Shown piece by piece: positions 41,739 through 60,410 of a stretch of DNA of 64,000 bases (the stretch's first letter is position 1; each line of letters begins with the position of its first letter). This DNA is from Okeania sp. KiyG1 (GTDB lineage Bacteria; Cyanobacteriota; Cyanobacteriia; Cyanobacteriales; Microcoleaceae): contig NZ_BLZO01000058.1 in the NCBI RefSeq assembly GCF_014132355.1, forward strand, positions 124,001 through 188,000, in the 5' to 3' direction. The position numbers were made by a program, and so were the translations under genes. Under the pieces are notes generated by a model. That model saw only the letters and a list, made by a program, of their open reading frames with translations, had not been told where the DNA came from and ran no database searches.

Positions 41739-44700
41739 ATGACCAAAACCCTACTTGTCCCCATCCATGTTGATGCCCTATGTCTAGACAGTGATCGACC
41801 TGCCCTCACAACAATGGCTGATTATAGACTATTACCATATATTTATCAAAATGATACTCATGGTTCGGGACAAGATAATCTCAGTGAACAGATTCTTGCC
41901 CCCTTATTTAACCAAAATTTTCAGCTTAAAGCAGGAATTCATCTCCATTGGTCATTACCAGATACCCTAACCAATGGACAACATGATGAAACTGGAACTA
42001 TTTTTCCTCGCGTACCTAACCGTTGGTTAGTTTTACGCCAAGGTGGTAATAAAGGAAATAAGCAATGGATTATTGAAAGTGACTATCTCTATCCTGAACT
42101 TGACCCGGACGATCGTACAACTCCTGATGCTATTAATATTCTCATAGAACCGCCAGATTTGGCTAATGTTAATCCTGAAGATCCTAGCACTTATCAATAC
42201 CAACGTTATCGCCACATGGGACGTACTTGGGAATTAGGAGAATGGCAGTCAGAAGAAGAAACTAAGGAATATGCATCTGCATTAACTGCTATTGGGAATA
42301 AGGCAAAAATACCCATATTTGATGAAGTTAAAGCTACCTTTGCCGCATTTTATCCCAATTGTTACAGCGTTTTTGGGTTGGTGGATTCGGAATATACCAC
42401 TAATGCTCCTCCTTCTGGGTTGCAATATGACATAATTGGTTATTACAGTGATGAGCAACAGGATTTTTTACAATTATTCTTAGCAGAAAATGATGGTAAA
42501 ACTAATGAAGAATTACTGGAATTATTGCAAGAAGAGTTTAATTGGACTTTAGATTTAGAGCAAGTAGAGCCAGGTTTTCCTGAAAGAACGCTGTATCATT
42601 CTAGAGTAACTTTTAGTGGTTCAGGTAATTCTGCAATAGATGGGGTAAACAGTTTATCCAATCCAACTATTGCGGTAGCTGATTCTGCTCCAGAAGCTCT
42701 TGCTGCTTATTTAGCTCATTCTTTCAACCCTGAAAACAATGAGACAGGAAAGAACATCCGCAAAGAAGTTGAAGACAAAATACAAGCCTTGCAACTATTA
42801 GAAAAGTTGCAGTCACGCAAACTTGATGTTAGTCCTAAATTTTTAGAAGGACAACATGAATTGGGATTTGGGACTCAAAACGATGGCCATCTTTGGACTA
42901 TCCTGCCTGAAGTTTCTCAAGAAAGGAAACTGATTTCCAAGAAACCCAGTCAACAGAGAATACCGACAGAACTGGCTCAAGCACTCAATGAACTAAATAG
43001 TCTTCAAGAGCAATATCATCAGGCTTGGCTAGATATAGAATCTATGCGTCGCCAGTTGTATAGCCAGTGGTATGACTTTATGCAGAATGATAAGAGTGAA
43101 AATTTCTACGAAACTATCAATATAACCAGTCTTATCCCTTTAAGGACAGCGATCGCCAAAGCAGGAGAATTAGAATTTACCCAAAATAAAGATGAAAATG
43201 GCATAGTAACAATTACAGTAACGGCAAAAGCTTTACCTTTTGGTATTTTATCTCAGTTAAATGATGCCTATTCTGAGAAATATTTCAGTTATTACGTCGA
43301 TCTCATTCAAGCAGCAGCTGCTGATGAAAATTATGACTGGGGTGATATAAAGGTTGAATTTGACAACTGTGGGGTGAAATTATCTGATAATGCGACTGTT
43401 ACAACTATTACTGAAGGTGAAGCTTGGCAAATAGAAGATTCAGGTCAAATTTATGACGTTAAAGTAGAAGGGGGTATTTTTAATATTTATATTCCTCCCA
43501 CTGACTCTCAAATTGCCGTTCAAGTCACCAATGCTATTCATAATTTAAGTGAAGCGATCGCCACTAACAACAGCCAAAAACTAACTACTAAATATAATCT
43601 CAGACCATTTGTCAGTCAAAATTACTGGCGTGCCAACGAACCAGCAATTTTATTAACTGGAGATGCAGCCAAAGCCCCTCTGCGGTTTGGGCAAGATGGA
43701 CGGTTAAATCAAAATGATTACTTAGAATGTCAACCTTTAGATTTTGATGTCAAGACAATTATTGATAATTTAGAGCAACTTAAAGAGCAAATTGATAATC
43801 TCCAACCTGAAGGAGAGGGAGAATCAATTAACTTTATCACTTGGAATGAACAACCTTGGAATCCTTTTGCTTTCCATTGGTTAGTTCTCTTTTATCCTTG
43901 TCGTGATCAAGAAGAGGGTGAAGTCCAAGATTATCACCCCAATCAAATTATTGATAACTATAGTTTAGAACCAAATGCCATAGACTTACAGCTTAAGGCA
44001 GGAAAGCAAAGCAGTTTTATTGAAAGTGGCAATACTTATAGTGGTTTTAGCCTATTAAGCCCTACTGTAGGTAGTGACTTGAGCGAACGAATCATCTATT
44101 ATCTGAACGAAGAACTACTTCCTAACTACTATTTTGCTAATAGCATTCCTGAAGCAGATAAAACTTCAGATTATTTGACTAAGAATTTTGATGCAGTTAG
44201 GGATTGGTATTATGCAGAAACAGGTATAGGAGATCGGCTTCCAGAAGAACAAGTTCAAGACCCTATCTTTGTAGCCTTATGGGCATACGAGGAAATGGAA
44301 GACCTACAATGTATGGCTCAGTGTATAGGTGGTGTAAATGATACTCTCCTGCTAGCTCAACCAACTCTACAACTAGAAGTGGATGATCCTCTGACTAACG
44401 ATCCAGTGGCAAAAATCTTCCATGAACAAGTACGTTGGACTTTGGGTAATAGTTTACAATACAAATTCCTCACTGGAGACATTTTCAATCCTATCCGTAG
44501 TGGGGCGATGTCTATTGGCAAATTGTGGTTAGTTGATAGTTTTGGACAACACAAAAAAGTGGTAGAAGCGAATGATGTAATTACTGAGGTTGTCACCACT
44601 TACCGTATGGACCCTCCTAATACTGGTGCTGATAATAAATTTTTATTATCGCCTCGTTTGGCTCAACCTGCCCGTCTTAACTTCCACTGGTTAGCTGCGG

Positions 44701-45767
44701 ATGCCCTTCAAGAGGTAGAAATGACCAAGGCACCAGCGAGAACGCCTGTTTGTGGTTGGATTCTTCCTAATAATCTTGATAGTAACCTAGCAATTTATGA
44801 CCATCAAGGTTTCAGTTTGGGAACAATTGATGTGGATGGAAAGTGGCGTGATGCTCCAGAGGTAACTATAGAGAGTGATGCCCATGACCGTCCTCTTTTA
44901 TCTAATCATCATTTACGCAAACTGGTTCACTATATTTTAGAACAAAGGGAGGAATTTCAACAAGATTTTCTTTCGACTCTGGATAATTCTCTAGCTACCA
45001 TCGATCCTGAAAGCTTTGCTGAACATACTACTTTAGCTTTGTTAGTGGGACGACCTATTGCTGTGGTGAGGGCAACTTTTAGTTTAGAAGTTAAAGGTTT
45101 ACCTGCGATCGACCCTACAGTTAAAATTGAAAGTACGGAACAAGCACCAGCTAATTATGGGTTTACAGAGGTTAAAATTCCGATCCGTTTAGGAGACTAT
45201 CAACAACTCAATGATGGTTTAGTGGGATATTGGCGAGAAAAACCTGTAGGTGATGAGGGAGATTATGAATATGAGGGCAATATGTTTTATGCACCCCAAA
45301 GTCGTATTGCCAATCATCCCCTGATTCAAACTGAAAAAGAAGGGTTAGTATATTTTGAGCAAACGGTAGATGCACCTCCTCAAGGGGTGACAATGTTAAT
45401 CGATCCGAGGGGGGTAGTTCATGCTACTTGTGGAGTTTTACCTAATCAGGAATTACGTTTACCTGCGGAAAATTATAATCATGCTTTACAGGCGATCGAG
45501 GTTAATTTCCTTTCTACTCCTATTTTATCCGATCGCAGAGATAGGACTATTGCTAATAGCGATCGACTAGGCCACTTTAATCGAATTGCTATTCCTTTAC
45601 CTGAAGAACCTGGTAGTACTTGGTCTTGGTTGACTTTACAGAACGAAAAATGGTCAGAGAAAGAAAAGATTAAACCTGTTAATTTCAAGGCCACTTTTTA
45701 TCGATCGCAGGAGGCTTCTGAAGGTTGGTTACAACTAAGTCAAATTTATGATCAAGAAGATTCTTAG
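41739..45767 (+). CDS. Giant protein A of the A-B-C-D cluster, unknown function
   Basis: This 1342-residue protein starts MTKTLLVPIHVDALCLDSD. No signal peptide, membrane helix or enzyme domain is visible. The N-terminal third has FQLKAGIHLHWSLPDTL and FPRVPNRWLVLRQG, blocks I recall in large hypotheticals of actinomycetes, myxobacteria and cyanobacteria with no assigned role. The centre contains a coiled coil (about residues 345-450) and further Trp-rich segments (EQPWNPFAFHWLVLFYP). The C-terminus (LATIDPESFAEHTTLALLVG, RPIAVVRATFSLEV) suggests a beta-rich module. B, C and D on the same strand, of comparable size and also signal-free, suggest a complex. GC and HIP1 content match the surroundings. 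Confidence 0.75.
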   Translation: MTKTLLVPIHVDALCLDSDRPALTTMADYRLLPYIYQNDTHGSGQDNLSEQILAPLFNQNFQLKAGIHLHWSLPDTLTNGQHDETGTIFPRVPNRWLVLRQGGNKGNKQWIIESDYLYPELDPDDRTTPDAINILIEPPDLANVNPEDPSTYQYQRYRHMGRTWELGEWQSEEETKEYASALTAIGNKAKIPIFDEVKATFAAFYPNCYSVFGLVDSEYTTNAPPSGLQYDIIGYYSDEQQDFLQLFLAENDGKTNEELLELLQEEFNWTLDLEQVEPGFPERTLYHSRVTFSGSGNSAIDGVNSLSNPTIAVADSAPEALAAYLAHSFNPENNETGKNIRKEVEDKIQALQLLEKLQSRKLDVSPKFLEGQHELGFGTQNDGHLWTILPEVSQERKLISKKPSQQRIPTELAQALNELNSLQEQYHQAWLDIESMRRQLYSQWYDFMQNDKSENFYETINITSLIPLRTAIAKAGELEFTQNKDENGIVTITVTAKALPFGILSQLNDAYSEKYFSYYVDLIQAAAADENYDWGDIKVEFDNCGVKLSDNATVTTITEGEAWQIEDSGQIYDVKVEGGIFNIYIPPTDSQIAVQVTNAIHNLSEAIATNNSQKLTTKYNLRPFVSQNYWRANEPAILLTGDAAKAPLRFGQDGRLNQNDYLECQPLDFDVKTIIDNLEQLKEQIDNLQPEGEGESINFITWNEQPWNPFAFHWLVLFYPCRDQEEGEVQDYHPNQIIDNYSLEPNAIDLQLKAGKQSSFIESGNTYSGFSLLSPTVGSDLSERIIYYLNEELLPNYYFANSIPEADKTSDYLTKNFDAVRDWYYAETGIGDRLPEEQVQDPIFVALWAYEEMEDLQCMAQCIGGVNDTLLLAQPTLQLEVDDPLTNDPVAKIFHEQVRWTLGNSLQYKFLTGDIFNPIRSGAMSIGKLWLVDSFGQHKKVVEANDVITEVVTTYRMDPPNTGADNKFLLSPRLAQPARLNFHWLAADALQEVEMTKAPARTPVCGWILPNNLDSNLAIYDHQGFSLGTIDVDGKWRDAPEVTIESDAHDRPLLSNHHLRKLVHYILEQREEFQQDFLSTLDNSLATIDPESFAEHTTLALLVGRPIAVVRATFSLEVKGLPAIDPTVKIESTEQAPANYGFTEVKIPIRLGDYQQLNDGLVGYWREKPVGDEGDYEYEGNMFYAPQSRIANHPLIQTEKEGLVYFEQTVDAPPQGVTMLIDPRGVVHATCGVLPNQELRLPAENYNHALQAIEVNFLSTPILSDRRDRTIANSDRLGHFNRIAIPLPEEPGSTWSWLTLQNEKWSEKEKIKPVNFKATFYRSQEASEGWLQLSQIYDQEDS

Positions 45768-46159: not shown

Positions 46160-46165
46160 ATGCCA
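46146..46165. repeat. REP palindrome left of the RAYT gene
   Basis: CAGGCTGGAAGCCTATGCCA is a palindromic REP (AGGCT/AGCCT arms). The common form elsewhere (46703, 50530, 50668) continues GTTCCACA. Here GTT has become ATG, forming the transposase start codon. Confidence 0.75.
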
Positions 46166-46645
46166 CAAGAAGAACTCAAGATTACACAAAGAGATTTACC
46201 TCACTGGGAATTTGATGGAGCTGTATATTTCATCACTTTTAAAACCTGGAACAGACTTGAATTGACTCCGGCAGCTAGACAAATTGTTTTAGATGCTTGT
46301 CTTTTCTTTCATAGAAAGCGATATGATGTTTTTGTTTTAGTTGTTATGCCAGATCATGTTCATATTTTAATACATCCTCTAGTTAAAGAGGAGTCAGAAG
46401 AGGAATATTGGTCTGTTAGTAGTATTATGCACAGCATCAAAAGTTATAGTGCTAAACAAATTCTGAAAATAATGACCAACATTGGTCAAGTTTGGCAATC
46501 AGAAAGATACGATCGCATTGTCAGAAATGACTTAGAATTAACAAATATGTGGGAGTATATTCGCCAAAATTCTGTTAAAGCAGGACTGTCTGATTCTCCA
46601 GAAGATTACCCTTTTTTCTGGCAAGAGACAGATTTACAAATTTGA
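46160..46645 (+). CDS. REP-associated tyrosine transposase (RAYT)
   Basis: This 161-residue Y1 HUH transposase of the IS200-like family has the HUH pair in VMPDHVHILIHPL, the tyrosine in WEYIRQNSVKAGL and a typical FITFKTWNR start. RAYTs are single-copy enzymes that mobilise REP palindromes. The gene is flanked by REPs: CAGGCTGGAAGCCT at 46146, which overlaps its start codon, and at 46703. The start ATG was created by GTT-to-ATG in the REP tail. It is intact and may drive spread of the half-REP array found at 50001. Confidence 0.85.
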   Translation: MPQEELKITQRDLPHWEFDGAVYFITFKTWNRLELTPAARQIVLDACLFFHRKRYDVFVLVVMPDHVHILIHPLVKEESEEEYWSVSSIMHSIKSYSAKQILKIMTNIGQVWQSERYDRIVRNDLELTNMWEYIRQNSVKAGLSDSPEDYPFFWQETDLQI

Positions 46646-46702
46646 GAGGAATTATAGTAATTACATTAATTAAATTAATCACAAATCACAAATCACAAAT
46701 CA

Positions 46703-46726
46703 CAGGCTGGAAGCCTGTTCCACAAG
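46703..46726. repeat. REP palindrome right of the RAYT gene
   Basis: CAGGCTGGAAGCCTGTTCC followed by ACAAG, the complete REP form, in the same orientation as the left REP and about 55 bases before the start of gene B. Confidence 0.8.
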
Positions 46727-46778
46727 AAAAAGTTAACTTGTTAAATAATCAATAAACAATTTATTTGGAGTTAAAAAA

Positions 46779-49700
46779 ATGAGCATTTCAGATATTACTG
46801 GCCCTAATGATATTACTGTCGATTTAGTAGAAAGTTTGACTACAATAGAGGACTTTATTAACTTAATCATCGACGCATTTGGCATCTCAGAGGATGATGT
46901 AAATTTAACTACTCTTGATATCTTTACTCTGACAGAAGCTACTGTAGAAATCGACTCAGTGAAAGGTAATTATGAATTTACTGTAGGAGTTACCATAGAT
47001 ATTAATCAAGATGATGAGGGAAATGCCACTAAACAATTAAGTGGTAGCCTCAAGATTGACATACAATACAACAATTTGGCATACACTGGTGAATATGGTG
47101 GTTCCTTATCTATTCCTCTGTCAGATGGTACTAATCTCATCTTTGATTTATATTATCAAACTAAAAATGATCCATCGGGCGATAATGTTAAATTAGTTAT
47201 TGGACAGCTAAATATTCAAGAAGAACAAGATATAGGAAATGTTAATTTAGCCAGTTTAGTTGGGGAAATTTGTCCGAGTTTAGAATCATTATTCCCTGAA
47301 GAACTTGTAGAGGCATTTAATCTTCAGGAAAATGTTCTTTTTGGAATTTATAGCACTGTAAATAATCAGGGAATTACTAGGAAGAAAATGCTGTTTAGCA
47401 TTGGTTTTAATGCCAATATTAATTTCAGTCGAATTCCTTTAGTGGGAGATTTCTTACCTCAAGAAATGTACTCCAGTCAGTTCGCTTTTGAATTTTTAGT
47501 GTCATTACAAAAATACACCCAAAAAGAACTAAGAATTCTCAATGGTTTGCTAGAAGAACTCAATACCCCATTAAAAATCAAACCTCCTTCTACCACTATT
47601 AATGAGTTAGATAGGGGAGCAAGTATTATTGCTTATTTTGATATTCTGGGTTACATAAAAGCATGGTTATTAAACTTAAAACGTACTAAAAGTAGTGGCA
47701 GTGGTACAAGGCCGGGAGGTCGCAGTGCCAGCATAACAGTACAAAGTGAAAAATCCTCCCTGGTTGCTTCTTCTACAACTACCACTCCTACTCCAAGCGA
47801 TGATAATCTAATTACCCTAGCTGATAATGGTGTCTGGTTAGAAATTCATAAATCCTTTGGGCCAATTCGCTTTGAAAAAGTGGGCTTGGTTTACAAAAAA
47901 GGACAAATACACCTCACCCCTGAATTTCTAATTCAAGATTCTTCCTTATTGCTCTCTGTCAATACCCTTTCTATCAGTTCTCCTTTAACTACCTTTAATC
48001 CTGAGTTTAATCTTGATGGTTTTGGTTTACAGGTAATTTGCCGAGGCTTAGAAATTTCAGGAGCATTCCTGGCTAAGGAAGGGAGCAATTATGATGAATA
48101 TCTAGGCACGGCTACAGTAGCATTTACCAGGGGTAAAGGGGGTAAATCTGCCTTATCTCTCTCTGCTATTGGCGGTTTTGCTGATTATACTGATAGTGGA
48201 GAATTTTCTCTGTTTATCTACTTAGCAGGTGATTTTCCGATTGGTGGACCGCCTTTCTTCTTCATCACTGGTATTTCTGGAGGATTAGGCTACAACTACG
48301 ATTTAATTGTCCCTCCTCTGGAAAAATTAGAGGAATTTCCTTTTGTGTATCAAGCAATGGAGGGACCAGATCCTATAGATCCTAGTCAAACTGAGGCGAT
48401 CGTTACTGAACAATTAGAGCTTTTGGACAAATATATACCTCCTCTCAAAGGAAGTGGTTGGGGTGCTGTGGGTCTTGATTTTACCTGCTTCAAAATTATT
48501 GATTGCTTTGGTTTAGTGACTTTTGCTATTAGTCAGAGTGATTTTGAACTGTGTTTAATCGGTATTGGACTTTTACAACTTCCTACTACTCTTGGTCGCT
48601 TTGAGCCTATTGCTCAAGCGGAAGTAGCTCTAGAAGCACGTTTTGCTCCTATGGATGGAGAGTTGATGGTTCGTGGACAACTTACCCCCAATTCTTATAT
48701 CTTTAGTCGCAATTGCGTTTTAACAGGGGGTTTTGCTTATGGTTTATGGTTTGCAGGTTCTCGTGCTGGTGATTTTATCTTTAGCCAAGGAGGCTATCAT
48801 CCCCGATTTCAACGTCCTCCTCACTATCCTGATGTGCCACACATTGGCATGACTTGGCAAATTGATAATCATGCTTTTACTACTGCCCAAATTTATTATA
48901 GTCTCTGCGGTCATGGTATAATGGCAGGGGGATTATTTGCTATTGCCTATAAAGCAGGTAGCGTGTGGGCTAGTTTTGATGCGGGGGCTGATTTTTTGCT
49001 TGGTTGGGCACCTTATCATTATGATATTGACCTCCATGCTCATGTTCGTGCAGGAATCGGAAATGTTAGTGTGGGTTTAGGCATCGGCATTCATTTTTGG
49101 GGTCCTGATTTTGGTTGTAAGTTTAAGATCCGAATTTTAATAATTCCTATTACTATCAAAATTGGGGATCAAAGTTCTATTTATCCTAATCCTATTCCAT
49201 GGAGCGAATTTGAGGAGACATTTTTACCAGAGCCAGAGGATGTTTGCAGTATTACTGCTATTGATGGTTTGTTGAAACAAATTGTGGTAGGGGAAGGAGC
49301 AGAGGAAAAAGAAGTGTGGGTTATTAATCCAAAATCCTTTGAAATGTCAACAGATAGCTTGGTTCCATCAAAACAGGTTTTTGCAGGGGATGAAGAAAAA
49401 TCCTTTGATACTAATATCGCATTTGGTATTAATTCTATGGGTATTAGCAGTAGTCAATTGAAAACGACTCATAAGGTAACTCTTGTTAAAGATTTAGCAG
49501 GGGATCGTGAGGAAAATGTGGAATACAAATTTACATTTGAAGCTATTCCCAAACTAGCCTCAACAGCTACTTGGGGAATACCCCGTATGTCAGAGGGTCG
49601 TATAAGACCCCCAGAAGTTAATGCAGAGCAATTCATTGAGAATGTGTTCTATGGTTTGCGTATTACTCCTGCTGAACCTCCTAAACCAGGCAAAACCCAT

Positions 49701-49958
49701 GTAATCGGCGTGGAACATTTACTTTATGATACTGTACTTGTTGACGATCGCTATATTTGGGAAACTTTAGATCCATTTGTGCCTAATTCTGCTTATAATA
49801 CAGATGAGGAAAAACTTGAACGTGTTGAGGAAACTTTAAGAAATAATTCTCAAAGAGATGAAATTTTGCAATCTTTAGGGTACGATTTAAGTGAAGTGGA
49901 TATTGAGGATACTGAGGCGATCGCTGATGGTTTTGTTTTTGCCCCTCTGGTTAAATAA
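46779..49958 (+). CDS. Giant protein B, DUF6603-like
   Basis: This 1059-residue protein starts MSISDITGPNDITVDLVE behind a TTTGGAG ribosome-binding site. It has an N-terminal alpha/beta region (to about 290), a Ser/Thr-rich linker (about 312-350) and a large glycine-rich, beta-strand-dominated region (about 400-810) with FFFITGISGGLGYNY, GGYHPRFQRPPHYPDVP and GSVWASFDAGADFLLGW. These are the landmarks I associate with DUF6603, a long domain of unknown function found in bacteria and fungi. A C-terminal tail (about 840-1059) is acidic. No signal peptide. Size and strand link it to A and C; function unknown. Confidence 0.7.
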   Translation: MSISDITGPNDITVDLVESLTTIEDFINLIIDAFGISEDDVNLTTLDIFTLTEATVEIDSVKGNYEFTVGVTIDINQDDEGNATKQLSGSLKIDIQYNNLAYTGEYGGSLSIPLSDGTNLIFDLYYQTKNDPSGDNVKLVIGQLNIQEEQDIGNVNLASLVGEICPSLESLFPEELVEAFNLQENVLFGIYSTVNNQGITRKKMLFSIGFNANINFSRIPLVGDFLPQEMYSSQFAFEFLVSLQKYTQKELRILNGLLEELNTPLKIKPPSTTINELDRGASIIAYFDILGYIKAWLLNLKRTKSSGSGTRPGGRSASITVQSEKSSLVASSTTTTPTPSDDNLITLADNGVWLEIHKSFGPIRFEKVGLVYKKGQIHLTPEFLIQDSSLLLSVNTLSISSPLTTFNPEFNLDGFGLQVICRGLEISGAFLAKEGSNYDEYLGTATVAFTRGKGGKSALSLSAIGGFADYTDSGEFSLFIYLAGDFPIGGPPFFFITGISGGLGYNYDLIVPPLEKLEEFPFVYQAMEGPDPIDPSQTEAIVTEQLELLDKYIPPLKGSGWGAVGLDFTCFKIIDCFGLVTFAISQSDFELCLIGIGLLQLPTTLGRFEPIAQAEVALEARFAPMDGELMVRGQLTPNSYIFSRNCVLTGGFAYGLWFAGSRAGDFIFSQGGYHPRFQRPPHYPDVPHIGMTWQIDNHAFTTAQIYYSLCGHGIMAGGLFAIAYKAGSVWASFDAGADFLLGWAPYHYDIDLHAHVRAGIGNVSVGLGIGIHFWGPDFGCKFKIRILIIPITIKIGDQSSIYPNPIPWSEFEETFLPEPEDVCSITAIDGLLKQIVVGEGAEEKEVWVINPKSFEMSTDSLVPSKQVFAGDEEKSFDTNIAFGINSMGISSSQLKTTHKVTLVKDLAGDREENVEYKFTFEAIPKLASTATWGIPRMSEGRIRPPEVNAEQFIENVFYGLRITPAEPPKPGKTHVIGVEHLLYDTVLVDDRYIWETLDPFVPNSAYNTDEEKLERVEETLRNNSQRDEILQSLGYDLSEVDIEDTEAIADGFVFAPLVK

Positions 49959-50767
49959 AAGTCCATCAAAAACTATTCATTGTGGAATTAAAAATACCGT
50001 GGAACAGGCTTCTAGCCTGTTCAAAAAACACAGGCTGGAAGTTCCAAAAAACACAGACTGGAAGTTGAAAAAAACACAGGCTAGAAGTTGAAAAAAACAC
50101 AGGCTGGAAGTTGAAAAAAACACAGGCTGGAAGTTGAAAAAAACACAGGCTGGAAGTTGAAAAAAACACAGACTGGAAGTTCCAAAAACACAGGCTGGAA
50201 GTTCCAAAAACACAGACTGGAAGTTCCAAAAACACAGGCTGGAAGTTCCAAAAACACAGGCTGGAAGTTCCAAAAAACACAGGCTGGAAGTTCCAAAAAC
50301 ACAGGCTGGAAGTTCCAAAAAACACAGGCTGGAAGTTCCAAAAACACAGGCTGGAAGTTCCAAAAACACAGGCTGGAAGTTCCAAAAACACAGGCTGGAA
50401 GTTCCAAAAAACACAGGCTGGAAGTTCCAAAAAACACAGGCTGGAAGTTCCAAAAAACACAGGCTGGAAGTTCCAAAAAACACAGGCTGGAAGTTCCAAA
50501 AAACACAGGCTGGAAGTTCCAAAAAACACAGGCTGGAAGCCTGTTCCACAATCACAATCACAATCACAATCACAATCACAATCACAATCACAATCACAAT
50601 CACAATCACAATTACAATCACATCAAAATATGAGGATGAAGCAAACACTGTTCCCTCTTAAAAAAAACACAGGCTAGAAGCCTGTTCCACAGGAAGATTA
50701 ATAATTCCTTAAATTAAAAGCAAGAAAGTTAAACAGGTATAATTGTTTTCAATAGGAGCAAACTCAA
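49959..50767. repeat. Half-REP array and AATCAC array between B and C
   Basis: 50001-50022 is a full REP-type palindrome (GGAACAGGCTTCTAGCCTGT). From 50023, 22 direct units of 22-24 bases (AAAAAACACAGGCTGGAAGT with TCC or TGA) follow, ending in a complete palindrome at 50530-50545. Most units carry only one arm, so they are half-REPs. Their length varies in the A run. Then about 12 AATCAC hexamers (50548-50624) and another REP (50668-50692). Long frames on both strands through the array are artefacts. The last 70 bases hold the AGGAGC ribosome-binding site of gene C. Confidence 0.9.
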
Positions 50768-52714
50768 ATGGCAGAAGAAGAAAAAGAAATGCCTTTTAGG
50801 TTTCGTTGGTGCTATGAAGATGAGGAAGAAGGGGAAATATGTCAGGTTTTACTATTGGGTAAAACTGATGCTGTTCCACCTCTTCATATTGATATCGCCA
50901 ATGACCTCAAAGATAAAAATATCTCTATCTATCCCATTGATGGAGTAACCGAAGCCGACTCAAGCAATTATCACTTTAAATTGGCTTTTAATCCTGGTAT
51001 CTTAGTTGAGCCACAAAGTATTAGCCTTGAAAGTGAAAATTGGTCAATTAGTTCCGAGGGTGATGCTAATGCTGTCAGTCTTTATCTGCTTTGGACAGGT
51101 GATGAAACTATCCTCAGACCTAATGAGGCTATGGAAATTATTTTAACTGGTGTAGCTGCTCAAACATTGACAGATGGCACAACTAGATCCCTGGCAAGAA
51201 CAAGGGCAGCAGGCACCGCGACTACTGATGTTACCATTAGTTGGCAGTTGGAAGAGGGAATTATTGAGATTGGCGATCCTAGCGATATAACTAGGAGACT
51301 CCCTGGACAAGAAGACGAATATGCAAAATCTACTACATTAACACTAAATATGGTACAAGCAACTGGAAAATCTAATATCCCTCTCTTTGTTGGTTTTGTA
51401 AACTGTAACAAGGTTCTCAATACTAATAATGAATTGAGTAATTTGCAACTACGGATTACTAATACTAACCTTCCTGGCACCCTTAGCACTACAAATTTTT
51501 CCTCTAGCTCACGTTTGGCTTCTCCCCCTTTTGAAGGTCCAGGTCCAAATCCAGCCTCTCCACATCCTCCTGATTATTATCCTCCTGATTATCATCCTGA
51601 ACCACCACCATCTACTCCTGAGCCTCCTGACATTACTAGCGATCCAAAACTTAATATCGTTTTTCAATACGATCTTGATATCACTCTTTCTTCTCAATTA
51701 GTAGTGATGTTAGAAGTGGGAACTGTACAAGCGGCTCCTTGGGCATTGGCAACTGAAGATCAACTTAACGATATTTCAGTTGAAATTGAAGGGGGGCAAT
51801 GGCGACAAAACGGGGTGCAAACAATAGAAGTAGGAGGTATAACAAAAGCAATACAATGGAGTTTTATCCCTCAAAATGCTGATGTGATATTAACTGCTCA
51901 AGAAACAATGTTAATTAATTTAAGCAACATTGTTACGAATCACCCCACAGGGGAAACTAACCTCTACTTATATTATAAAAGGGTTAAAGATTATAAGGAT
52001 GGGAAGTTTACTTGTCAAATTGAAAAAGGTCCTTTGACTTTATTCGATCAGGAAGTGCGTATTGGCAATACAGCTGAAATTAAGAATGCGGGTCCTTTGG
52101 TCTTCCGTTCTGATGTAGATAAAACTCGCGATCAATCATCAGTTCAATTTTTCGTAAAAGATGAAAGTAGTCCTTTGATGAACTTAGATTCAGATGCGGA
52201 TCTTAAGGTAGTAGATACATTAACTGCCTACAGAATTAAAGGAGATGGTGCTGTTTTTACTGGCATGATTTTGATGTGGTCGGGAATGGAAGATGACATT
52301 CCCTTTGGTTGGAAGCTATGTGATGGTCAGAATGGAAGACCGGATTTAAGAGGTCGATTTATAGTCGGTGTAGGACAGAATGAAGAAAGAACTAACTATC
52401 AATTCCAAGAACAAGGGGGAGCAGATAGTGTTACTTTAACTATCGAGCAAATGCCCTCACATAGTCATGGTGTTACAGATGATGGTCATAGTCATCAATT
52501 CTCTTCACCTAAAATGCGATTCACCCAGGCAGGTCATGGTTCTGGTATCTCTGACGACCAGTTCGAGACAAAGTATACTGTAAGTAATACAACAGGTATT
52601 AGTATTGATGAGGCAGGAGATGATCAATCATTTGACAACAGACCTTGTTATTATGCCTTGTGCTTCATTATGAAAGTAGATGTAAGTGAGTACAAAACAT
52701 TAAGTAGTTTATAG
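50768..52714 (+). CDS. Protein C with phage tail-collar domain
   Basis: This 648-residue protein has three parts. Residues 1-250 form a beta-rich N-terminus (MAEEEKEMPFRFRWCYEDEE). Residues 253-290 are a Pro-rich linker (SPPFEGPGPNPASPHPPDYY). Residues 498-645 form a phage tail-collar/fibre-type domain: GMILMWSGMEDDIPFGWKLC, DGQNGRPDLRGRFIVG, EQMPSHSHGVTDDGHSH and DNRPCYYALCFIMKV. Collar domains occur at the ends of phage tail fibres and in microcystin-type adhesins. Lacking a signal peptide, it is likely released as part of a particle or injectisome-like assembly, or by a non-classical route. Confidence 0.8.
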   Translation: MAEEEKEMPFRFRWCYEDEEEGEICQVLLLGKTDAVPPLHIDIANDLKDKNISIYPIDGVTEADSSNYHFKLAFNPGILVEPQSISLESENWSISSEGDANAVSLYLLWTGDETILRPNEAMEIILTGVAAQTLTDGTTRSLARTRAAGTATTDVTISWQLEEGIIEIGDPSDITRRLPGQEDEYAKSTTLTLNMVQATGKSNIPLFVGFVNCNKVLNTNNELSNLQLRITNTNLPGTLSTTNFSSSSRLASPPFEGPGPNPASPHPPDYYPPDYHPEPPPSTPEPPDITSDPKLNIVFQYDLDITLSSQLVVMLEVGTVQAAPWALATEDQLNDISVEIEGGQWRQNGVQTIEVGGITKAIQWSFIPQNADVILTAQETMLINLSNIVTNHPTGETNLYLYYKRVKDYKDGKFTCQIEKGPLTLFDQEVRIGNTAEIKNAGPLVFRSDVDKTRDQSSVQFFVKDESSPLMNLDSDADLKVVDTLTAYRIKGDGAVFTGMILMWSGMEDDIPFGWKLCDGQNGRPDLRGRFIVGVGQNEERTNYQFQEQGGADSVTLTIEQMPSHSHGVTDDGHSHQFSSPKMRFTQAGHGSGISDDQFETKYTVSNTTGISIDEAGDDQSFDNRPCYYALCFIMKVDVSEYKTLSSL

Positions 52715-53010: not shown

Positions 53011-56000
53011 TTATTCACCTGTTGGTTCATTGACATACACCTCGTTGCCTCCGAACATAGCAAAGATAGCATCTAAATCACCATCCCCATCTAAATCTCC
53101 TAAACTCACTCCATAGCTATAGTTTGAGCCTAAAGAGTTACCAATGTAGGTGAAATTCCCATTGCCATCATTGAGATACACTTGGTTGGATTGAGCAATA
53201 TTAGCAAAGACAGCATCTAAATCACCATCTGAGTCTAAATCTCCCAAACTCACTCCATGGCTATAGTTTGAGTATGAGCCTAAAGAGTTACCACTGTCGG
53301 TGAATTTCCCATTGCCATCATTGAGATACACTTGGTTGGGTCGATCATTAGCAAAGACAGCATCTAAATCACCATCCCCATCCACATCTCCTAAACTTAC
53401 TTCATAGCTATAGTGTGAGCCTAAAAAGTTACGACTGTCGGTGAAGTTCCCATTGCCATCATTGAGATACACTTGGTTGGGTTCAACAACATTAGCAAAG
53501 ACAGCATCTAAATCACCATCCCCATCCACATCTCCTAAACTTACTTCATAGCTATAGTGTGAGCCTAAAGAGTTACCACTGTCGGTGAACTGCCCATTGC
53601 CATCATTGAGATACACTCGGTTGCCTTGATGGTCATAATTAGCGAAGACAGCATCTAAATCACCATCCCCATCCACATCTCCTAAACTCACTCCATAGTT
53701 ACCGTTTAAGCCTAAAGAGTTACCTCTGTGGATGAACTTCCCATTACCATCATTGAAATACACACCACTAGCAGCAAAGACAGCATCTAAATCACCATCC
53801 CCATCTAAATCTCCTAAACTCACTCCATAGTTACCGTTTGAGCCTAAAGAGTGACCACTGTCGGTGAACTTTCCATTGCCATTATTGAGATACACTCGGC
53901 TGGGTTCAAAAGAATTAGCAAAGACAGCATCTAAATCACCATCCCCATCCACATCTCCTAAACTCACTGCCCAGCTATCGTTTGAACCTAAAGAATTAGA
54001 GAAGATGAAGTTAGCATAACCTTTTGCTACTTCAGTTCGGTATTGAAATACATAAGGGTTAACTGCTGGTCCTTGATCGCTTTCTAAGCCATCAGTAACG
54101 GTTACTTCTACTAATTCACCTGGCTTAAAGTCAGCTTCAGGATTTATGGTTACATTGCTACCACTTTCTGTTACTACCGTGTCATTGCTTGGGGAAGTCT
54201 GACTGGTATGTAAAACTACATTTTCATTGGTAGCCGTAGCAGTGTTTAAATTACCGTCAAAGGCAAGGGTAATATCGCTATTAACAGCACTATCGTTACT
54301 GTTGGCTGTAGGATTAGTTGCTTGTACTTCAAGAGGAATTGGTTGACTGAGATACACGCTGTTGGCTTGAGCATAATTAGCAAAGACAGCATCTAAATAA
54401 CCATCTGAGTTCACACCTCCTAAACTCACTCCATAGCTATCGTTTGACCCTAAAGAGTAATCCGTGGGGGTGAAATTCCCATTGCCCTCATTGAGATACA
54501 CGCTGTTGTCTCCGTTATTAGCAAAGACAGCATCTAAATCACCATCCCCATCTAAATCTCCTAAACTCACTCCATAGCTATCGTTTGAGCCTAAAGATTT
54601 AGGGGTGTCGGGGAAATTCCCACTGCCATCATTGAGATACACGGTGTTGGCACCATCCAAATTAGCAAAGACAGCATCTAAATCACCATCCCCATCCACA
54701 TCTCCTAAACTCACTCCATGGCTATACTTTGAGCCTAAAGATTGAGAGGTGGTGTCGGGGAAATTCCCATTGCCATCATTGAGATACACGCTGTTGCCTC
54801 CGTTATTAGCAAAGACAGCATCCAAATCACCATCCCCATCCACATCTCCTAAACTCACTCCATGGCTATACTTTGAGCCTAAAGATTGAGAGGTGGTGTC
54901 GGGGAAATTCCCACTGCCATCATTGAGATACACGGTGTTGGCACCATCCAAATTAGCAAAGACAGCATCTAAATAACCATCCCCATCTACATCTGCTAAA
55001 CTCACTCCCATGCTATCGTTTGAGCCTAAAGAGTTACCATTGTCGGTGAAATTCCCACTGCCATCATTGAGATACACGGTGTTGCCTTGAGCATAATTAG
55101 CGAAGACAGCATCTAAATAACCATCCCCATCTACATCTGCTAAACTCACTCCCCTGCTATCGTTTGAGCCTAAAGAGTTACCATTGTCGGTGAAATTCCC
55201 ACTGCCATCACCGAGATACACTTGGTTGGCTTGACCAAAATCATTAGCGAAGACAGCATCTAAATAACCATCTGAGTTCACATCTCCCAAACTCACTCCA
55301 ATGCTATTGAAATTGCCGAAAGAGTTAGTGGTGATGTTTGTGAACTGAGAAGGACCTTTTGCTACTTCAGTCCGGTATTGGAATACATAAGGGTTAGCTG
55401 CTAGTCCTTCTTCACTTTCTAAGCCTTCAGTAACGGTTACTTCTACTAATTCACCGGGCTTAAAGTCGGCTTCAGGATCTATGGTTACACTGCGATCACT
55501 TGCTGTTACTTCCGTGTCATTACTTGGGGAAGTCTGACTGGTATGTAAAACTACATTTTCATTGGTAGCCGTAGTAGTGTTTAAAGTACGGTCAAAGGTA
55601 ACGGTAATATCGTTATTAACGGCACTATCGTTACTGTTAGCTGTAGGATTAGTTTCTTGTACTGTAGTCGATCCGACGTCGGAAACGTAATTCCGCGAAA
55701 CAGATGGGTAGTCAACGATAAATTCTGCCCTGTCGCCACAGATGTTTGTCCACACTGCACCCATAGAGTCAGATGCCTCTAGATCGATGCTAGCTTTGTC
55801 ATTACAGGGCATGGAGATGCTACCAGCAAAAGTAGCAGGTTGAAGGGCAAAAAACCCCACAATGACTACTGCAAATAGAGCCATCAATAAAGACTTTGGT
55901 ATCCTTTCAGAGAATCCTAATACTCTTCTGGCTATCACCATAGCGGCGGCGGTGACTGAATTTAACCGATAACAGGGCATATATTTAATCATACCAATCT

Positions 56001-56058
56001 CTGATGTGGCGAATGGATTCTTAAATATTGCCTCGATATCATATTTTTTTCTGGTCAA
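53011..56058 (-). CDS. FG-GAP repeat surface protein with duplicated modules
   Basis: This 1015-residue protein has an N-terminal hydrophobic anchor (SLLMALFAVVIVGFFALQP, about residues 57-75), which acts as a signal or membrane anchor; the ATGs at 24 or 28 could be the real start. Two equal halves follow. Each has one SbsA/Big_5-like Ig domain (NPTANSNDSAVNNDITVTF to ADFKPGELVEVTVT) then seven FG-GAP/VCBS repeats (GVSLGDVDGDGDLDAVFAN), fourteen in all. Each repeat carries a DxDxDG calcium loop. Such proteins are calcium-stabilised surface adhesins or beta-propellers. It is on the strand opposite to A-D, so it looks inserted between C and D. Confidence 0.8.
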   Translation of the reverse strand: MTRKKYDIEAIFKNPFATSEIGMIKYMPCYRLNSVTAAAMVIARRVLGFSERIPKSLLMALFAVVIVGFFALQPATFAGSISMPCNDKASIDLEASDSMGAVWTNICGDRAEFIVDYPSVSRNYVSDVGSTTVQETNPTANSNDSAVNNDITVTFDRTLNTTTATNENVVLHTSQTSPSNDTEVTASDRSVTIDPEADFKPGELVEVTVTEGLESEEGLAANPYVFQYRTEVAKGPSQFTNITTNSFGNFNSIGVSLGDVNSDGYLDAVFANDFGQANQVYLGDGSGNFTDNGNSLGSNDSRGVSLADVDGDGYLDAVFANYAQGNTVYLNDGSGNFTDNGNSLGSNDSMGVSLADVDGDGYLDAVFANLDGANTVYLNDGSGNFPDTTSQSLGSKYSHGVSLGDVDGDGDLDAVFANNGGNSVYLNDGNGNFPDTTSQSLGSKYSHGVSLGDVDGDGDLDAVFANLDGANTVYLNDGSGNFPDTPKSLGSNDSYGVSLGDLDGDGDLDAVFANNGDNSVYLNEGNGNFTPTDYSLGSNDSYGVSLGGVNSDGYLDAVFANYAQANSVYLSQPIPLEVQATNPTANSNDSAVNSDITLAFDGNLNTATATNENVVLHTSQTSPSNDTVVTESGSNVTINPEADFKPGELVEVTVTDGLESDQGPAVNPYVFQYRTEVAKGYANFIFSNSLGSNDSWAVSLGDVDGDGDLDAVFANSFEPSRVYLNNGNGKFTDSGHSLGSNGNYGVSLGDLDGDGDLDAVFAASGVYFNDGNGKFIHRGNSLGLNGNYGVSLGDVDGDGDLDAVFANYDHQGNRVYLNDGNGQFTDSGNSLGSHYSYEVSLGDVDGDGDLDAVFANVVEPNQVYLNDGNGNFTDSRNFLGSHYSYEVSLGDVDGDGDLDAVFANDRPNQVYLNDGNGKFTDSGNSLGSYSNYSHGVSLGDLDSDGDLDAVFANIAQSNQVYLNDGNGNFTYIGNSLGSNYSYGVSLGDLDGDGDLDAIFAMFGGNEVYVNEPTGE

Positions 56059-56567: not shown

Positions 56568-56894
56568 GCAGTTTTCAGCCTGGCGAGGTACATTAATGAT
56601 CCCCCGCGCATCCCCCTTAAAAAGCTATCCCTTATAAGGAACTCCTGAAAACCTTGTGTGGAGTAGGGGAGTAGGGGAGTAGGGAGCAGGGGAGAAGGGA
56701 GAAAGAATCAATATGGAATAGGAAAAACTACTTAAGTTATCAAGAAAAATCTACTTTTTAATACACTTTTTCTCTGGCAAAAATCTTTGAAAGGCTAGTA
56801 CATAACTTGTCGATTGTGTCAAGTTTTATGTTAAGAAAGATGTTTATAAAGCATAGCTTAAAAAGGGGGACTTCCAGTTCCCCCCTTGAGAAGG

Positions 56895-58335
56895 GCAGGG
56901 CTAATTCATTGTCGCCAGAGAAAAATATTGAGGAGTACAATGATTGTTGTCAAGTATTGAGTTAAGCTAACTATTCTCAATATTAGGGCTTAGATAGAAA
57001 TGAACTTATTACAAATATTGGCCCAATTACCAGATTTTCGAGCTGCTAGAGGGAGACGTTATCCATTATGGTTAGTATTACTGTTAGTAATTATGGGTAC
57101 AATGAGCGGTTGTTTCTCCTATTGTGCCCTAGAAGATTTTGCTCGTCGTCATCATCTGGCATTACAGCAACAACTAGAGCTATCGCCTTTGAGTTTTCCA
57201 ACTGAAGTCTACATTTCGGCGAATTATGACCAGAATTGATTTTGCTCAATTAGCTCAAGTATTCAATCAATGGGCTCAACACCAAATAACAATTCAAGAG
57301 GCCGAATGGTTAGCAGTGGACGGTAAGAGTATTAGGTCTACTGTCAGTGACTGTTATGGTTCTTACCAAGACTTTGTCAATGTTGTTTCTGTGTTCAGTA
57401 ATTGTCAAGGAGTACCTGTAGCCATAGAACAATTTCACGTGGGAAGAAAGTAGTGAAATTGCTGTTGTCCAAGCCATATTGGCTAGTTTAAACCTTGAAG
57501 GAGTAGTTTTTAGTTGCGATGCTTTACATTGTCAAAAAAAAACCGTCAAGTTAATCATTGACAGAGGTAACCATTACACAATAGCAGTCAAGGGTAATCA
57601 AAAAAAAACTGTACCAGCAAGTACAACTAACAACTGAACAAACACAACCAAGTAGTGTTGATATATCAGAAGATAGATCTAGAAATCGTGTGGTTTGTAG
57701 AACAGTGTCTGTGTTTAATAATCTGTTGGGAATTAGCTCTGAGTGGGAAGGAATTAAGTCTGTGATTAGAGTTGAGCGTCAGGGTACACGAGCAAGTGTT
57801 GACTATTATCAAACAGCTTACTACATTAGCAGTCTGAAATTAAGTGCAGCAGAATTTGCAGTAGGAATTCAGGGACATTGGGGAATTGAGAATCGACTAC
57901 ATTGGGTTAAAGATGTAGTGTTTCGAGAGGACACAAGTCTAATTCGGCACTCTCAAGCTGCTGCTAATTTTTCTGTGATTCGTCAGTTGGCGATCGCTAT
58001 CTGTCGCCTTCATGGTTATTCTTCCCTCACTACTGCGATTCGTACCATTGCTCACGATTTGGAGCAGATTTTTCTGATGATTATAAATCTAGAACTGTAG
58101 TCATTGAGAATTGAAATTGGCCCATACACAGAACCTCACTCCCCCCTAGTTTTCGATTTCAATAGTTCTGGTATTGGCGATCGCGACTGATATTAGCGAT
58201 CGCGACTGAGTCTGTGACATAAATTTTTCCTGTATAAGTATGATAATTTAGGGGAAAAGACTATGAAATACTTGACAATATGGCCAAACTTGTACTCCTC
58301 AATATTTTTCTCTGGCGACAATGAATTAGCCCTGC
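56895..58335 (+). mobile_element. ISAs1-family insertion sequence
   Basis: The 1441-base element has terminal inverted repeats of about 46 bases (GCAGGGCTAATTCATTGTC at the left, its reverse complement at the right end) and a 10-base duplication CTTGAGAAGG, as expected for ISAs1. The transposase is broken. It lies in an M2 MITE. Confidence 0.9.
57000..58100 (+). pseudogene. ISAs1 transposase, two frameshifts
   Basis: Three frames join to one transposase: MNLLQILAQLPDFRAARG with CALEDFARRHH, then ITIQEAEWLAVDGKSIRST (first DDE Asp in AVDGKS) and FVNVVSVFSNCQGVPVAIEQ, then FNNLLGISSEWEGIKSVIR to HWGIENRLHWVKDVVFRED (the conserved HWxIEN-LHW-D segment) and ATIRTIAHDL-like tail. Breaks lie near 57235 and between 57453 and 57690. 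The remnant cannot make a working enzyme, though full ends would allow mobilisation by a related transposase. Confidence 0.85.
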
Positions 58336-58433
58336 CTTGAGAAGGGGGGTTAGGGGGGATCTCCATAGCTGTACCTCACGCTTCTTGGGAAATGCTATAT
58401 TGTTAGATTTTGATAGGAAAAAAGAAGGTGTCA

Positions 58434-60410
58434 ATGACCAATATAATTAAACGAGTGAATTCCATGATAGCTAAAGAAAAAGACCAAGTTCAATTTATTC
58501 AATTCCATCAACCTGCTTTAGAAAGTGGAGACTATCACCTAAAAGTTGAGCAGACTCTTGATTATAATGGTACAGACAAAGACCTAAAAATTTATGAACG
58601 AGAACTAACTTTTACCGTACAAGGAGAACGTTTTGAACCCCTATCTCCTAACTCTATTTATGCAGTTTTTCCTCCCTCAGAAAGCTTAGGAGATCATTCT
58701 AACGTTCTGCCTCATATTACGGTTAAAAGAAGTACCCTACCTTGGGAACGTTATCCTGGATTTGAAGATGAAAATCTCTCTTGGTTAATTTTACTTTTAT
58801 TTCGAGATTCAGATTTTGAAGATGAGGCAGATAAACCCAAACCAAAAAATATTACTCTTGGAGAATTATTAGAGGGAGAAGACAACATCTTTTTTCCCAA
58901 AGATACAGAATTGCAACTAGGGCAAAAACCCAAAGATTTAGTAACAGTAATTGATGTTAAAAAGAAATATGTAAAAGATATTTTACCCAGTCATAATGAC
59001 CTAGCTTATCTTGCTCATGTTCGGAAAGCATCATCATCCGATCCAATATTAGAAAAAGAATTTCTACCTTTTCGTAATGAATATGCCACTATTATTTCTA
59101 ATCGTTTGCCCGAACCTAATGGTCGAAGTATAGTTCATTTAGTTTCCATAGAAGGACGGTATACTGAGGATGGTTTTGATTTTCTAGGAGCAGGAGATGA
59201 AGATTTAATCCGCTTTGTTAGTTTAGCAAGTTGGAGTTTTGATTGTGTCGATCCTAATCAGACTTTTACCCAATTATTACAAAGACTAAACCATCAACCT
59301 TCTACTCCAAGACTACCAGAAAATAACAATCCCCAAACAGAAGAATATTTAGCAAATGGTTATATAACCGTACCTCATGGTTTGCGAAAAGGAAGTAAAA
59401 CAATTTCTTGGTATCGAGGTCCTTTAAATACTGGTTATAATACAGAAACTTATCAATTTCCTGTCAAAGCAGCAGACGAATTATTACGTTATGATTCTGA
59501 AATTGCCATGTTTGATATATCCTATGCTGCTGCTTGGCAATTAGGACGAATGTTAATGTTAGAAAATAAACGTTTAGCCATAGAGTTATATAATTGGAAA
59601 CGACAACATTCCCAAAATTTGAAACGGTTAGAACAACTGGTATCAAACCTACCTCTAATTTCCCGACGAGAAGATAAACCCATCAATTTCATCCCCCCGA
59701 ACTTAAAAGAATGGTTTCGTGGAGTGGAATTATTGAAAGGAATACCCTTTAATTATTTAGTTCCTGATGAACGTTTACTACCACCAGAATCAATTCGTTT
59801 TTTCTGGGTAGATCCTCTATGGATAGACTGTTTACAAGATGGTACTTTTAGTATTGGTAGGGTGACAAATGCAGATGTAGAAGATGACCACAAAATTCGT
59901 TCTAATAAAGAATTTAATCTTAATGAAGAGCGAAAAATTACCGGAATTATTATGCGATCGAAAGTAGTTTCTGGATGGCCTGGGTTAATTGTTGATGGTT
60001 ACGATCGAGCAGTGGCAGATTTAGATTCTATAGATGAAACGGAGGGTAATATTTTATCTTTATTAAGAATGGAAACTTTAGCCGAAGATGTGTTAATTTG
60101 TTTATTTCAAGGAGAAGTGAAAACCGTTGATATTCACCTCGAACCAGAGTCTATGCACTTTGGTTTAGATGCACCTACAGTAGAATCTCCCGAATGGTCA
60201 AAAAATTTACGGCATGAGAATGGCGAACTTATGGATGAATTTTTAATTTCACCTATACCTTGGCATAATCAAGATAAAGAAGTAGTTAATTTAGAAGAAT
60301 TAACTCAACAAATGAATGAATATTTAAAATTAGATGAGTTTACTTCTGCTCAATTTGGGTTACAAATGATAGAAGGAGTTCAAAAAGTTAGGTTTGTTTA
60401 TCAACAATAA
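58434..60410 (+). CDS. Protein D of the A-B-C-D cluster, unknown function
   Basis: The ATG at 58434 gives 658 residues (MTNIIKRVNSMIAKEKDQ) and has an AGAAGGTG ribosome-binding site; the TTG at 58410 lies upstream in the same frame but is less likely. The N-terminal 150 residues hold FIQFHQPALESGDYHLKV and LPHITVKRSTLPWERYPG, blocks I recall in large hypotheticals of other bacteria, where genes like A may occur nearby. The central part is Trp/Pro-rich (ESIRFFWVDPLWIDCLQDG), the C-terminus charged. No signal peptide or enzyme motif. An M2 end lies 39 bases upstream. It sits about 5.7 kb downstream of C, past the FG-GAP gene and the ISAs1 insertion. Confidence 0.7.
   Translation: MTNIIKRVNSMIAKEKDQVQFIQFHQPALESGDYHLKVEQTLDYNGTDKDLKIYERELTFTVQGERFEPLSPNSIYAVFPPSESLGDHSNVLPHITVKRSTLPWERYPGFEDENLSWLILLLFRDSDFEDEADKPKPKNITLGELLEGEDNIFFPKDTELQLGQKPKDLVTVIDVKKKYVKDILPSHNDLAYLAHVRKASSSDPILEKEFLPFRNEYATIISNRLPEPNGRSIVHLVSIEGRYTEDGFDFLGAGDEDLIRFVSLASWSFDCVDPNQTFTQLLQRLNHQPSTPRLPENNNPQTEEYLANGYITVPHGLRKGSKTISWYRGPLNTGYNTETYQFPVKAADELLRYDSEIAMFDISYAAAWQLGRMLMLENKRLAIELYNWKRQHSQNLKRLEQLVSNLPLISRREDKPINFIPPNLKEWFRGVELLKGIPFNYLVPDERLLPPESIRFFWVDPLWIDCLQDGTFSIGRVTNADVEDDHKIRSNKEFNLNEERKITGIIMRSKVVSGWPGLIVDGYDRAVADLDSIDETEGNILSLLRMETLAEDVLICLFQGEVKTVDIHLEPESMHFGLDAPTVESPEWSKNLRHENGELMDEFLISPIPWHNQDKEVVNLEELTQQMNEYLKLDEFTSAQFGLQMIEGVQKVRFVYQQ

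What the first reader, a model, noticed from the sequence alone, without database searches (positions are those of the whole stretch)
41739..60410. Set of four giant signal-free proteins (A, B, C, D), possibly an undescribed extracellular or particle-like system
A (1342 aa), B (1059 aa), C (648 aa) and D (658 aa) lie on one strand and lack signal peptides. C ends in a phage tail-collar domain; B carries DUF6603-like landmarks; A and D carry blocks (AGIHLHWSLPDTL; LPHITVKRSTLPWER) that I recall only in uncharacterised large proteins. No sheath, baseplate, tube or ATPase gene is present, so this is not a recognisable contractile system. The set is broken up by a RAYT, a half-REP array, an opposite-strand FG-GAP gene and an ISAs1 element, so it may once have been one operon.
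Basis: partly seen in the sequence, partly recalled or inferred. Interest (0 to 1): 0.85.

Follow-up and report, generated by a model that had tools for sequence, protein, structure and literature searches.

The report
Undescribed fibre-and-carrier gene set
Four large genes in this cyanobacterium belong to a gene set that recurs together in many kinds of bacteria; it pairs a fibre with exchangeable tips with three unfamiliar giant proteins and often an exchangeable enzyme gene, so it may be an unrecognised device that carries proteins to other cells, which has not been tested.

Summary
A, B, C and D are intact. In 386 genomes of the window's phylum, D and B (DUF6603) occur in the same 8, A in 6 of those 8 (own genome included). 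In 184 Myxococcota, 8 carry all three. Of 75 loci fetched with A, 38 show all four genes in view, on one strand, mostly as A-C-B-D; a Trichodesmium contig has A-B-C-D unbroken. A and D were not found in the phage and viral sets. A, B and D have no convincing relative among solved structures. C is phage-fibre-like with a conserved head and changing tips. New here: B has two forms. All 25 long Bs with readable sequence upstream have a gene of at least 300 aa directly before them; 0 of 18 short Bs has. Those 25 genes form 11 groups (metallo-hydrolases, lipases, deaminase, nuclease-like) and differ even between two close Okeania. I read the set as an undescribed carrier-and-fibre apparatus with exchangeable cargo; the window has the short, cargo-free form, split by mobile DNA yet under purifying selection. 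Delivery is inferred; no structure could be predicted because the queue stayed full.

The parts
41739..45767 (+). A, 1342 aa, conserved giant protein of the cassette; no known family
46160..46645 (+). REP-associated tyrosine transposase (RAYT), insertion between A and B; shared with Okeania L052, not part of the system
46779..49958 (+). B, 1059 aa, DUF6603 protein, short form (no extra N-terminal block, no cargo gene before it)
50022..50622 (.). tandem-repeat arrays (23-base and 6-base units) between B and C
50768..52714 (+). C, 648 aa, fibre-like protein: conserved head, tail-collar type tip from about residue 490
53011..56058 (-). FG-GAP/Big_5 protein on the opposite strand; matching DNA follows C in Okeania L052 too; not part of the system
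56625..58341 (.). insert with a transposase fragment (ORF 57690-58100, family not tested), absent from Okeania L127 at the same place
58410..60410 (+). D, 658-666 aa, conserved protein of the cassette; no known family

Best explanation
A, B, C and D are the conserved core of one module. C is a receptor-binding fibre, probably trimeric: its head (about residues 1-450) joins the complex, and its tip is changed to suit the target. A, D and B are large soluble carrier or scaffold proteins. In the long-B form an extra block of some 270-580 residues at B's N-terminus goes with an enzyme gene directly upstream, which I take to be cargo held or presented by B. The complex would be assembled in the cytosol, leave by lysis or an unknown route, bind a target cell through C and hand over the cargo. 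The window holds the short-B, cargo-free form: a binding or carrier particle without an enzyme of its own. Shown: co-occurrence, one strand, fibre-like C with differing tips, coupling of B's form with the upstream gene, replacement of that gene between close relatives, purifying selection. Inferred: complex formation, trimerisation of C, release, target binding, delivery.
For: Co-occurrence: plasmids, A and D hit the same 8 of 72,556 records (three of the 8 are the same S. clavuligerus plasmid). Window's phylum: D 8, DUF6603 the same 8, A 6 of those 8, of 386 genomes, own genome included (one-sided Fisher 9e-17 and 6e-12). Myxococcota: D 9, A 10, B 12 of 184, all three in the same 8. Linkage: B in 56, C in 64, D in 41 of 75 A-loci, one strand in all 75. 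C: profile hits to tail fibres and to the Bdellovibrio fibre bd2133; of 62 C proteins Laminin_G_3 in 17, Peptidase_S74 in 13, Collar in 12, B_lectin in 1. Cargo: a gene of at least 300 aa before 25 of 25 long Bs with readable sequence and 0 of 18 short Bs (Fisher 1.6e-12); short Bs start 4-36 residues before the point where long Bs already have 272-581; 11 groups among 25 slot genes, with lipase, deaminase and nuclease-type domains and MBL hydrolases; between two Okeania A is 88%, B 75%, C 60% identical while the slot genes are unrelated. B form and slot gene change in step 7 times on the tree of A. dN/dS A 0.22 and 0.25, B 0.22, D 0.13, C 0.42.
Against: No structure, expression or particle data; 26 structure-prediction requests met a full queue. 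A, B and D have no recognisable fold, so carrier or shell is a guess. No pore, spike or translocation part is recognised. The window and the other short-B cassettes examined lack a cargo gene of this kind; five of the 18 short Bs have a smaller ORF there (161-235 aa, one of them the RAYT). The slot rule and its cut-offs (300 aa, 1200 aa) were set after seeing the data; only 3 of the 7 independent pairs on the tree rest on well-supported branches, too few for significance. B's extra block is poorly conserved: each of 25 blocks finds only 0-10 of the 24 others at E 1e-3. One slot MBL resembles defence proteins (LmuA, Avs1a), which suits an intracellular role. In Myxococcota four genomes have DUF6603 alone, one D alone and two A alone (one of these is the seed genome, picked for its A).
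Confidence: 0.5

Rival explanations
1. An intracellular conflict (anti-phage) system: A, B and D form a sensor or scaffold, the fibre-like C recognises phage or self parts, and the exchangeable slot enzyme kills or arrests the infected cell.
For: No signal-like stretches in the window's A-D; variable enzyme slot with MBL, nuclease-like and deaminase types; the slot MBL of L063 matches LmuA E 1.5e-19, RT-associated MBL and Avs1a and NCBIfam Avs1a/6A-MBL below cut-offs; patchy distribution, also on plasmids.
Against: A, B, C and D match no PADLOC model at E 0.1; no NTPase family among their Pfam matches; C proteins carry lectin-type and tail-collar domains typical of binding outside a cell; short-B cassettes have no such effector gene.
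Confidence: 0.2
2. A cell-surface or secreted adhesion complex (not delivery): C is the adhesin, A, B and D anchor or export it, and the slot enzymes act outside the cell on substrates such as lipids.
For: C resembles the Bdellovibrio MAT adhesive fibres, which are shown on the predator surface (PMC10769870, passages seen); lipase and hydrolase slot genes; short-B cassettes need no cargo.
Against: No signal-like or membrane-span-like stretch in the window's A-D; deaminase and nuclease-type slot genes have no obvious substrate at a surface.
Confidence: 0.2
3. An intracellular enzyme compartment or scaffold in which B holds metabolic enzymes and C is a structural spoke.
For: Several slot genes look like enzymes; most of the proteins lack export-like signals.
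Against: C evolves faster than the rest (dN/dS 0.42 against 0.13-0.25) and its tips differ in type, unlike a structural spoke; the enzyme types share no obvious pathway.
Confidence: 0.08
4. Unrelated large proteins or prophage/tailocin remnants that happen to be neighbours.
For: C has phage-like tip domains; the window locus is cut up by mobile DNA.
Against: Co-occurrence and linkage over many phyla; no A or D relatives found in viral contigs or 50,697 phage records; purifying selection.
Confidence: 0.02

Closest known systems
Extracellular contractile injection systems / tailocins (Afp, PVC, R-tailocins)
   Same: Exchangeable fibres for target choice and effectors carried by the particle (PMC10598620, passages seen); a works-like comparison
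   Different: No sheath, tube or baseplate family matched in A-D; A, B and D have no convincing relative among solved structures
MAT fibres of Bdellovibrio (bd2133 and others)
   Same: C's profile matches bd2133 (8ond, E 7e-11); S74 and non-S74 tips and mosaic tip domains as described in PMC10769870 (passages seen)
   Different: In 64 of 75 loci C stands with A, mostly also with B and D; it has its own conserved head; whether MAT fibres have such partners was not examined
DUF6603 (PF20248)
   Same: B is a full-length member (E 2e-107)
   Different: Pfam lists it as of unknown function; here it is placed in a defined cassette and shown to have two forms tied to an upstream gene
Polymorphic toxin and Tc toxin systems (recalled, not compared by sequence)
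   Same: Constant carrier with exchangeable enzyme cargo
   Different: Cargo is a separate gene, not a C-terminal cassette; no Rhs/YD or Tc family among the matches of A-D

Membership tests
DUF6603 (PF20248) | Match over the whole model above the curated cut-off | tested here: met
   B: 360 bits against 27, positions 1-501 of 502
eCIS / tailocin | Sheath, tube and baseplate genes in the cluster | tested here: not met
   No significant match of A, B or D to such a family in Pfam or PHROGs (A to Gp18_dom_I E 0.19 is chance level; C to baseplate Gp10_C E 1.5e-4 is a fibre-tip type match under cut-off). Sheath genes exist elsewhere in the genome. The window's ORFs outside 41-62 kb were read only by eye
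Phage tail-collar / fibre proteins | C-terminal fibre-tip domain | tested here: met
   C 484-639: PHROG tail-fibre/collar families down to E 2e-26; profile hits to T4 short tail fibre 1pdi E 6.5e-8 and 1ocy E 4e-6. Pfam Collar alone E 0.02, under cut-off
MAT fibres | Trimer of beta-helix/beta-prism with adhesive tip | not testable with these tools
   Sequence profile match only; structure prediction was never started
Known anti-phage systems | Match of core proteins to PADLOC models | tested here: not met
   A, B, C, D none at E 0.1; only the slot MBL of L063
Tc toxin complex | TcA pore / TcB-TcC Rhs cocoon domains (features recalled) | tested here: not met
   No Tc or Rhs Pfam/NCBIfam family among the matches of A-D; remote fold likeness not tested

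The most novel reading that the evidence does not exclude
A widespread, non-phage-derived protein-delivery apparatus made of three unknown giant proteins plus a fibre, with two independently exchangeable ends: the target-binding tip (C) and the enzyme cargo, loaded through an extra N-terminal block of B. Some slot proteins end in basic stretches like eukaryotic nuclear signals (7 of 35 against 9 of 141 flanking ORFs, but also 8 of 55 B proteins; looked for after the fact), so eukaryotic grazers are possible targets.
Probability: 0.4. Interest if true: 0.95.

Novelty: categorically new. Interest (0 to 1): 0.82.

Why it matters
If right, this is a class of cell-to-cell delivery (or sensing) device shared by cyanobacteria, myxobacteria, actinomycetes, Bacteroidota, Chloroflexota, Bacillota and others that the family libraries searched here do not describe as a unit. 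It gives DUF6603 and two nameless giant families a context, supplies a set of candidate cargo enzymes (the slot genes) and makes a clear prediction (long B binds the upstream protein) that one pull-down can test.

Tried and rejected
Structure prediction was asked for 26 times (25 times D with A3, once B with A4) and always met 'the machine is busy: 100 jobs are waiting', so no fold evidence exists and no fold search was run.

Solved structures by sequence: B and D none at E 1; A four hits at E 0.025-0.25 to coiled-coil chains (NUP62, a designed protein), taken as chance or coiled coil. Profile comparison of A, B and D with each other gave no relation. Phage and viral origin: no relatives of A or D (B and C were not searched there). 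Nuclear-signal enrichment in slot genes is weak (p 0.02, post hoc; B proteins show 8 of 55, A 4 of 77, C 1 of 68, D 0 of 27; mean K+R content no higher than in controls). A repeat array in B's N-terminus was not found: one module of about 110 residues was seen in 25 of 27 long Bs (not L115, L124), with a further weak piece in L068, L101 and L117. A first count of the slot rule gave 18 of 22 long Bs with a slot gene and 0 of 17 short; the search was then widened to allow overlap with B's first possible start and to take B-D-A-C loci, which turned two of the four exceptions (L083, L111) into slot carriers; the other two cannot be read. I first thought the whole N-termini of long Bs alike, but that likeness includes the shared module; the extra block alone is poorly conserved. 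Literature: 'DUF6603' 0 papers, 'PF20248' 0; three descriptive searches listed 12, 5 and 1 papers, none of which describes such a cassette by title or start of abstract. The library holds open-licence papers only.

Rows dropped before counts: the slot rule used 45 of the 75 loci (one B only, complete, at least 900 bases from the locus start); the C scan used the window plus 61 of 68 C ORFs of 400 aa or more; of the other 7, four (L111, L102, L115, L126) were scanned apart and three not. In the D re-check 33 of 34 loci lacking D were given (L089 not; it shares a genome with L078, which has D).
Full report
What is there. The window (contig 58 of a 10.98 Mb, 198-contig genome) holds four large intact ORFs on the + strand: A 41739-45767, B 46779-49958, C 50768-52714, D 58410-60410. 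B is a full DUF6603 protein; C ends in a tail-fibre/collar type tip; A and D match nothing significantly. None shows a strongly hydrophobic N-terminus by a simple scan; among homologs such N-termini were seen in 5 of 65 A, 1 of 40 B, 0 of 23 C and 0 of 22 D, and a membrane-span-like stretch in 1, 2, 0 and 0 of them. The nearest relative of A is in Okeania sp. SIO3B5 (L052, best segment 86%; 92% over 800 tree columns).

Do the four belong together? (1) Plasmids: tblastn with A and with D hits the same 8 of 72,556 records; three are one S. clavuligerus plasmid. In the five viewed (ORFs) D and A lie side by side; four have B directly before D, P. sonchi L003 has no B hit. (2) Window's phylum (cyanobacteria), 386 genomes, the own one included: D in 8, DUF6603 in the same 8, A in 6 of those 8. 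(3) Phylum of an Archangium genome (Myxococcota), 184 genomes: D 9, A 10, DUF6603 12, all three in the same 8; one genome has D alone, two A alone (one is the seed genome), four DUF6603 alone. (4) 75 loci chosen only for A (best 80 of 318 relatives among 346 pattern stretches; record titles name cyanobacteria, myxobacteria, Chloroflexota, Acidobacteriota, Bacteroidota, actinomycetes, Proteobacteria, Bacillota, Verrucomicrobia and others): HMMs built from the window, genome and plasmid sequences find B in 56, C in 64 and D in 41, on A's strand in all 75. At least five of these loci (L054, L055, L071, L074, L080) repeat contigs used to build the HMMs. All four are in view in 38 loci: A-C-B-D 26, A-B-C-D 5, B-D-A-C 5, D-A-B-C and C-A-B-D once each; 37 loci miss one or more, many of them cut by a contig or locus edge. 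Where D was out of view, 27 of 32 genomes still hold it (one only weakly, E 6e-7); where B was out of view, 12 of 18 genomes hold DUF6603. A and D were not found in viral contigs or in 50,697 phage records.

State of the window copy. In Trichodesmium (L054) A-B-C-D follow one another without further ORFs; in Symploca (L053, L060) and Moorena (L056) small ORFs of 123-234 aa lie between. In the window a RAYT and short repeats lie between A and B, a 23-base tandem array between B and C, and an opposite-strand FG-GAP gene plus an insert between C and D. RAYT and FG-GAP DNA are shared with Okeania L052; the 1.7 kb insert before D is absent from the same strain's contig L127. In L052 A is split and C is short (505 aa, no tip). 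Still, dN/dS of the window against this one relative is 0.22 and 0.25 (two parts of A), 0.22 (B), 0.42 (C), 0.13 (D): the genes look kept, C evolving fastest.

C is a fibre with changing tips. A profile of 22 C proteins finds tail fibres (9qgo E 1e-21), the Bdellovibrio fibre bd2133 (8ond E 7e-11) and T4 short tail fibre. Of 62 C proteins 17 have Laminin_G_3, 13 Peptidase_S74, 12 Collar, 6 Gp10_C, 1 B_lectin; two others carry a lactonase-type propeller, and a protein in C's position in L006 a PLAT domain. Against seven close relatives, residues 301-450 of the window's C are 38-88% identical; residues 551-648 are 12-27% in L054, L056, L057 and L060, absent in L052, and 34-50% in L053 and L058, which have the same kind of tip.

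A new rule: B's form and the gene before it. Many cassettes have one more gene directly before B. In 45 loci with one complete B, 25 long Bs (1238-1675 aa) have a gene of at least 300 aa there, 0 of 18 short Bs (901-1169 aa) has, and 2 long Bs cannot be judged because the stretch is unreadable (Fisher 1.6e-12 for the 43). Five short Bs have a smaller ORF there (161-235 aa). Six further loci read by eye agree: L005, L006 and G312 long with a gene, L002, L004 and G251 short without. In the alignment of B, short ones (the window's included) start 4-36 residues before the first shared module, long ones have 272-581 residues there; short Bs show no match to that block (0 of 19), and the blocks themselves are poorly conserved, each finding 0-10 of 24 others. 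On a tree of A the two traits change 7 times, in step; only 3 of the 7 independent pairs rest on strong branches. So the association is strong, its phylogenetic replication limited, and the cut-offs were set after seeing the data.

The slot genes are exchangeable. The 25 fall into 11 groups at E 1e-3: an MBL-fold group of 11 (of these, Pfam above cut-off in L063 and L100, weak in L104; ComEC/Avs1a/LmuA-like), class-3 lipases (L066, L107), a Bd3614-like deaminase (L096), endonuclease/exonuclease/phosphatase-type proteins (L108 just over the cut-off; L124, L115 only weakly, so these two groups may be distantly one) and unknowns; L097, outside the 45, has a subtilase in the C-B gap. Two Okeania cassettes (L066, L091) share A at 88%, B at 75% and C at 60% but have unrelated slot genes.

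Reading. One constant core (A, B, D), one exchangeable binding end (C) and, in the long form, one exchangeable enzyme coupled to a special block of B: the simplest account is a carrier that binds targets through C and brings an enzyme along. It works like an injection or toxin system but shares no recognised structural protein with one except the fibre tip. The window has the short form without cargo. Main rivals are an intracellular defence system with exchangeable effectors and a surface adhesion complex. No fold could be computed, so the carrier step is inference.

Novelty. DUF6603 is named in Pfam, but no paper in the library holds the name or the accession, and three descriptive searches found no account of such a cassette (listings and starts of abstracts only). 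PMC10769870 and PMC10598620 were seen in found passages only.

Noticed in passing
window 50022-50622: 23-base tandem unit in about 23 copies at 96% match, followed by a CACAAT array; open in several frames on both strands but most likely not coding.
   Followed up: partly
window 45765-46148: Four short tandem arrays (14-, 14-, 10- and 18-base units) fill the gap between A and the RAYT.
   Followed up: no
window 4859-7288: 809-aa protein of near-identical repeats (NxGNARNIGRLSGSRDFEDFVG...), seen by eye; looks like a recent expansion.
   Followed up: no
G000 contig 43: 22345-24049: Two neighbouring phage-sheath genes in the same genome, on another contig: a possible contractile injection system.
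   Followed up: no
L080, L087, L094, L105, L110, L113, L117, L125: A recurrent slot protein, mostly 820-1,080 aa; the members scanned (L094, L117, L125) have no Pfam family above cut-off; some others end in basic stretches like nuclear signals.
   Followed up: partly
L064, L084, L099, L103: Small gene (174-215 aa; no Pfam hit for L064) just before B (L064, L084) or before A (L099, L103); L064, L084 and L099 are short-B cassettes, so it may stand in for the missing slot gene.
   Followed up: no
L071, L086, L088: Extra small genes (Uma2-like and nucleotidyltransferase-like by eye) and, in L088, a methyltransferase/TPR gene pile up after C in some cyanobacterial cassettes.
   Followed up: no
G497 (Myxococcota): DUF6603 match inside an open frame of 3194 residues near D and A: a possible fused carrier, or only a long open frame in GC-rich DNA.
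   Followed up: no
L128 (G386 contig 75): The Okeania genome has a second, divergent D match inside a 1195-residue open frame.
   Followed up: no
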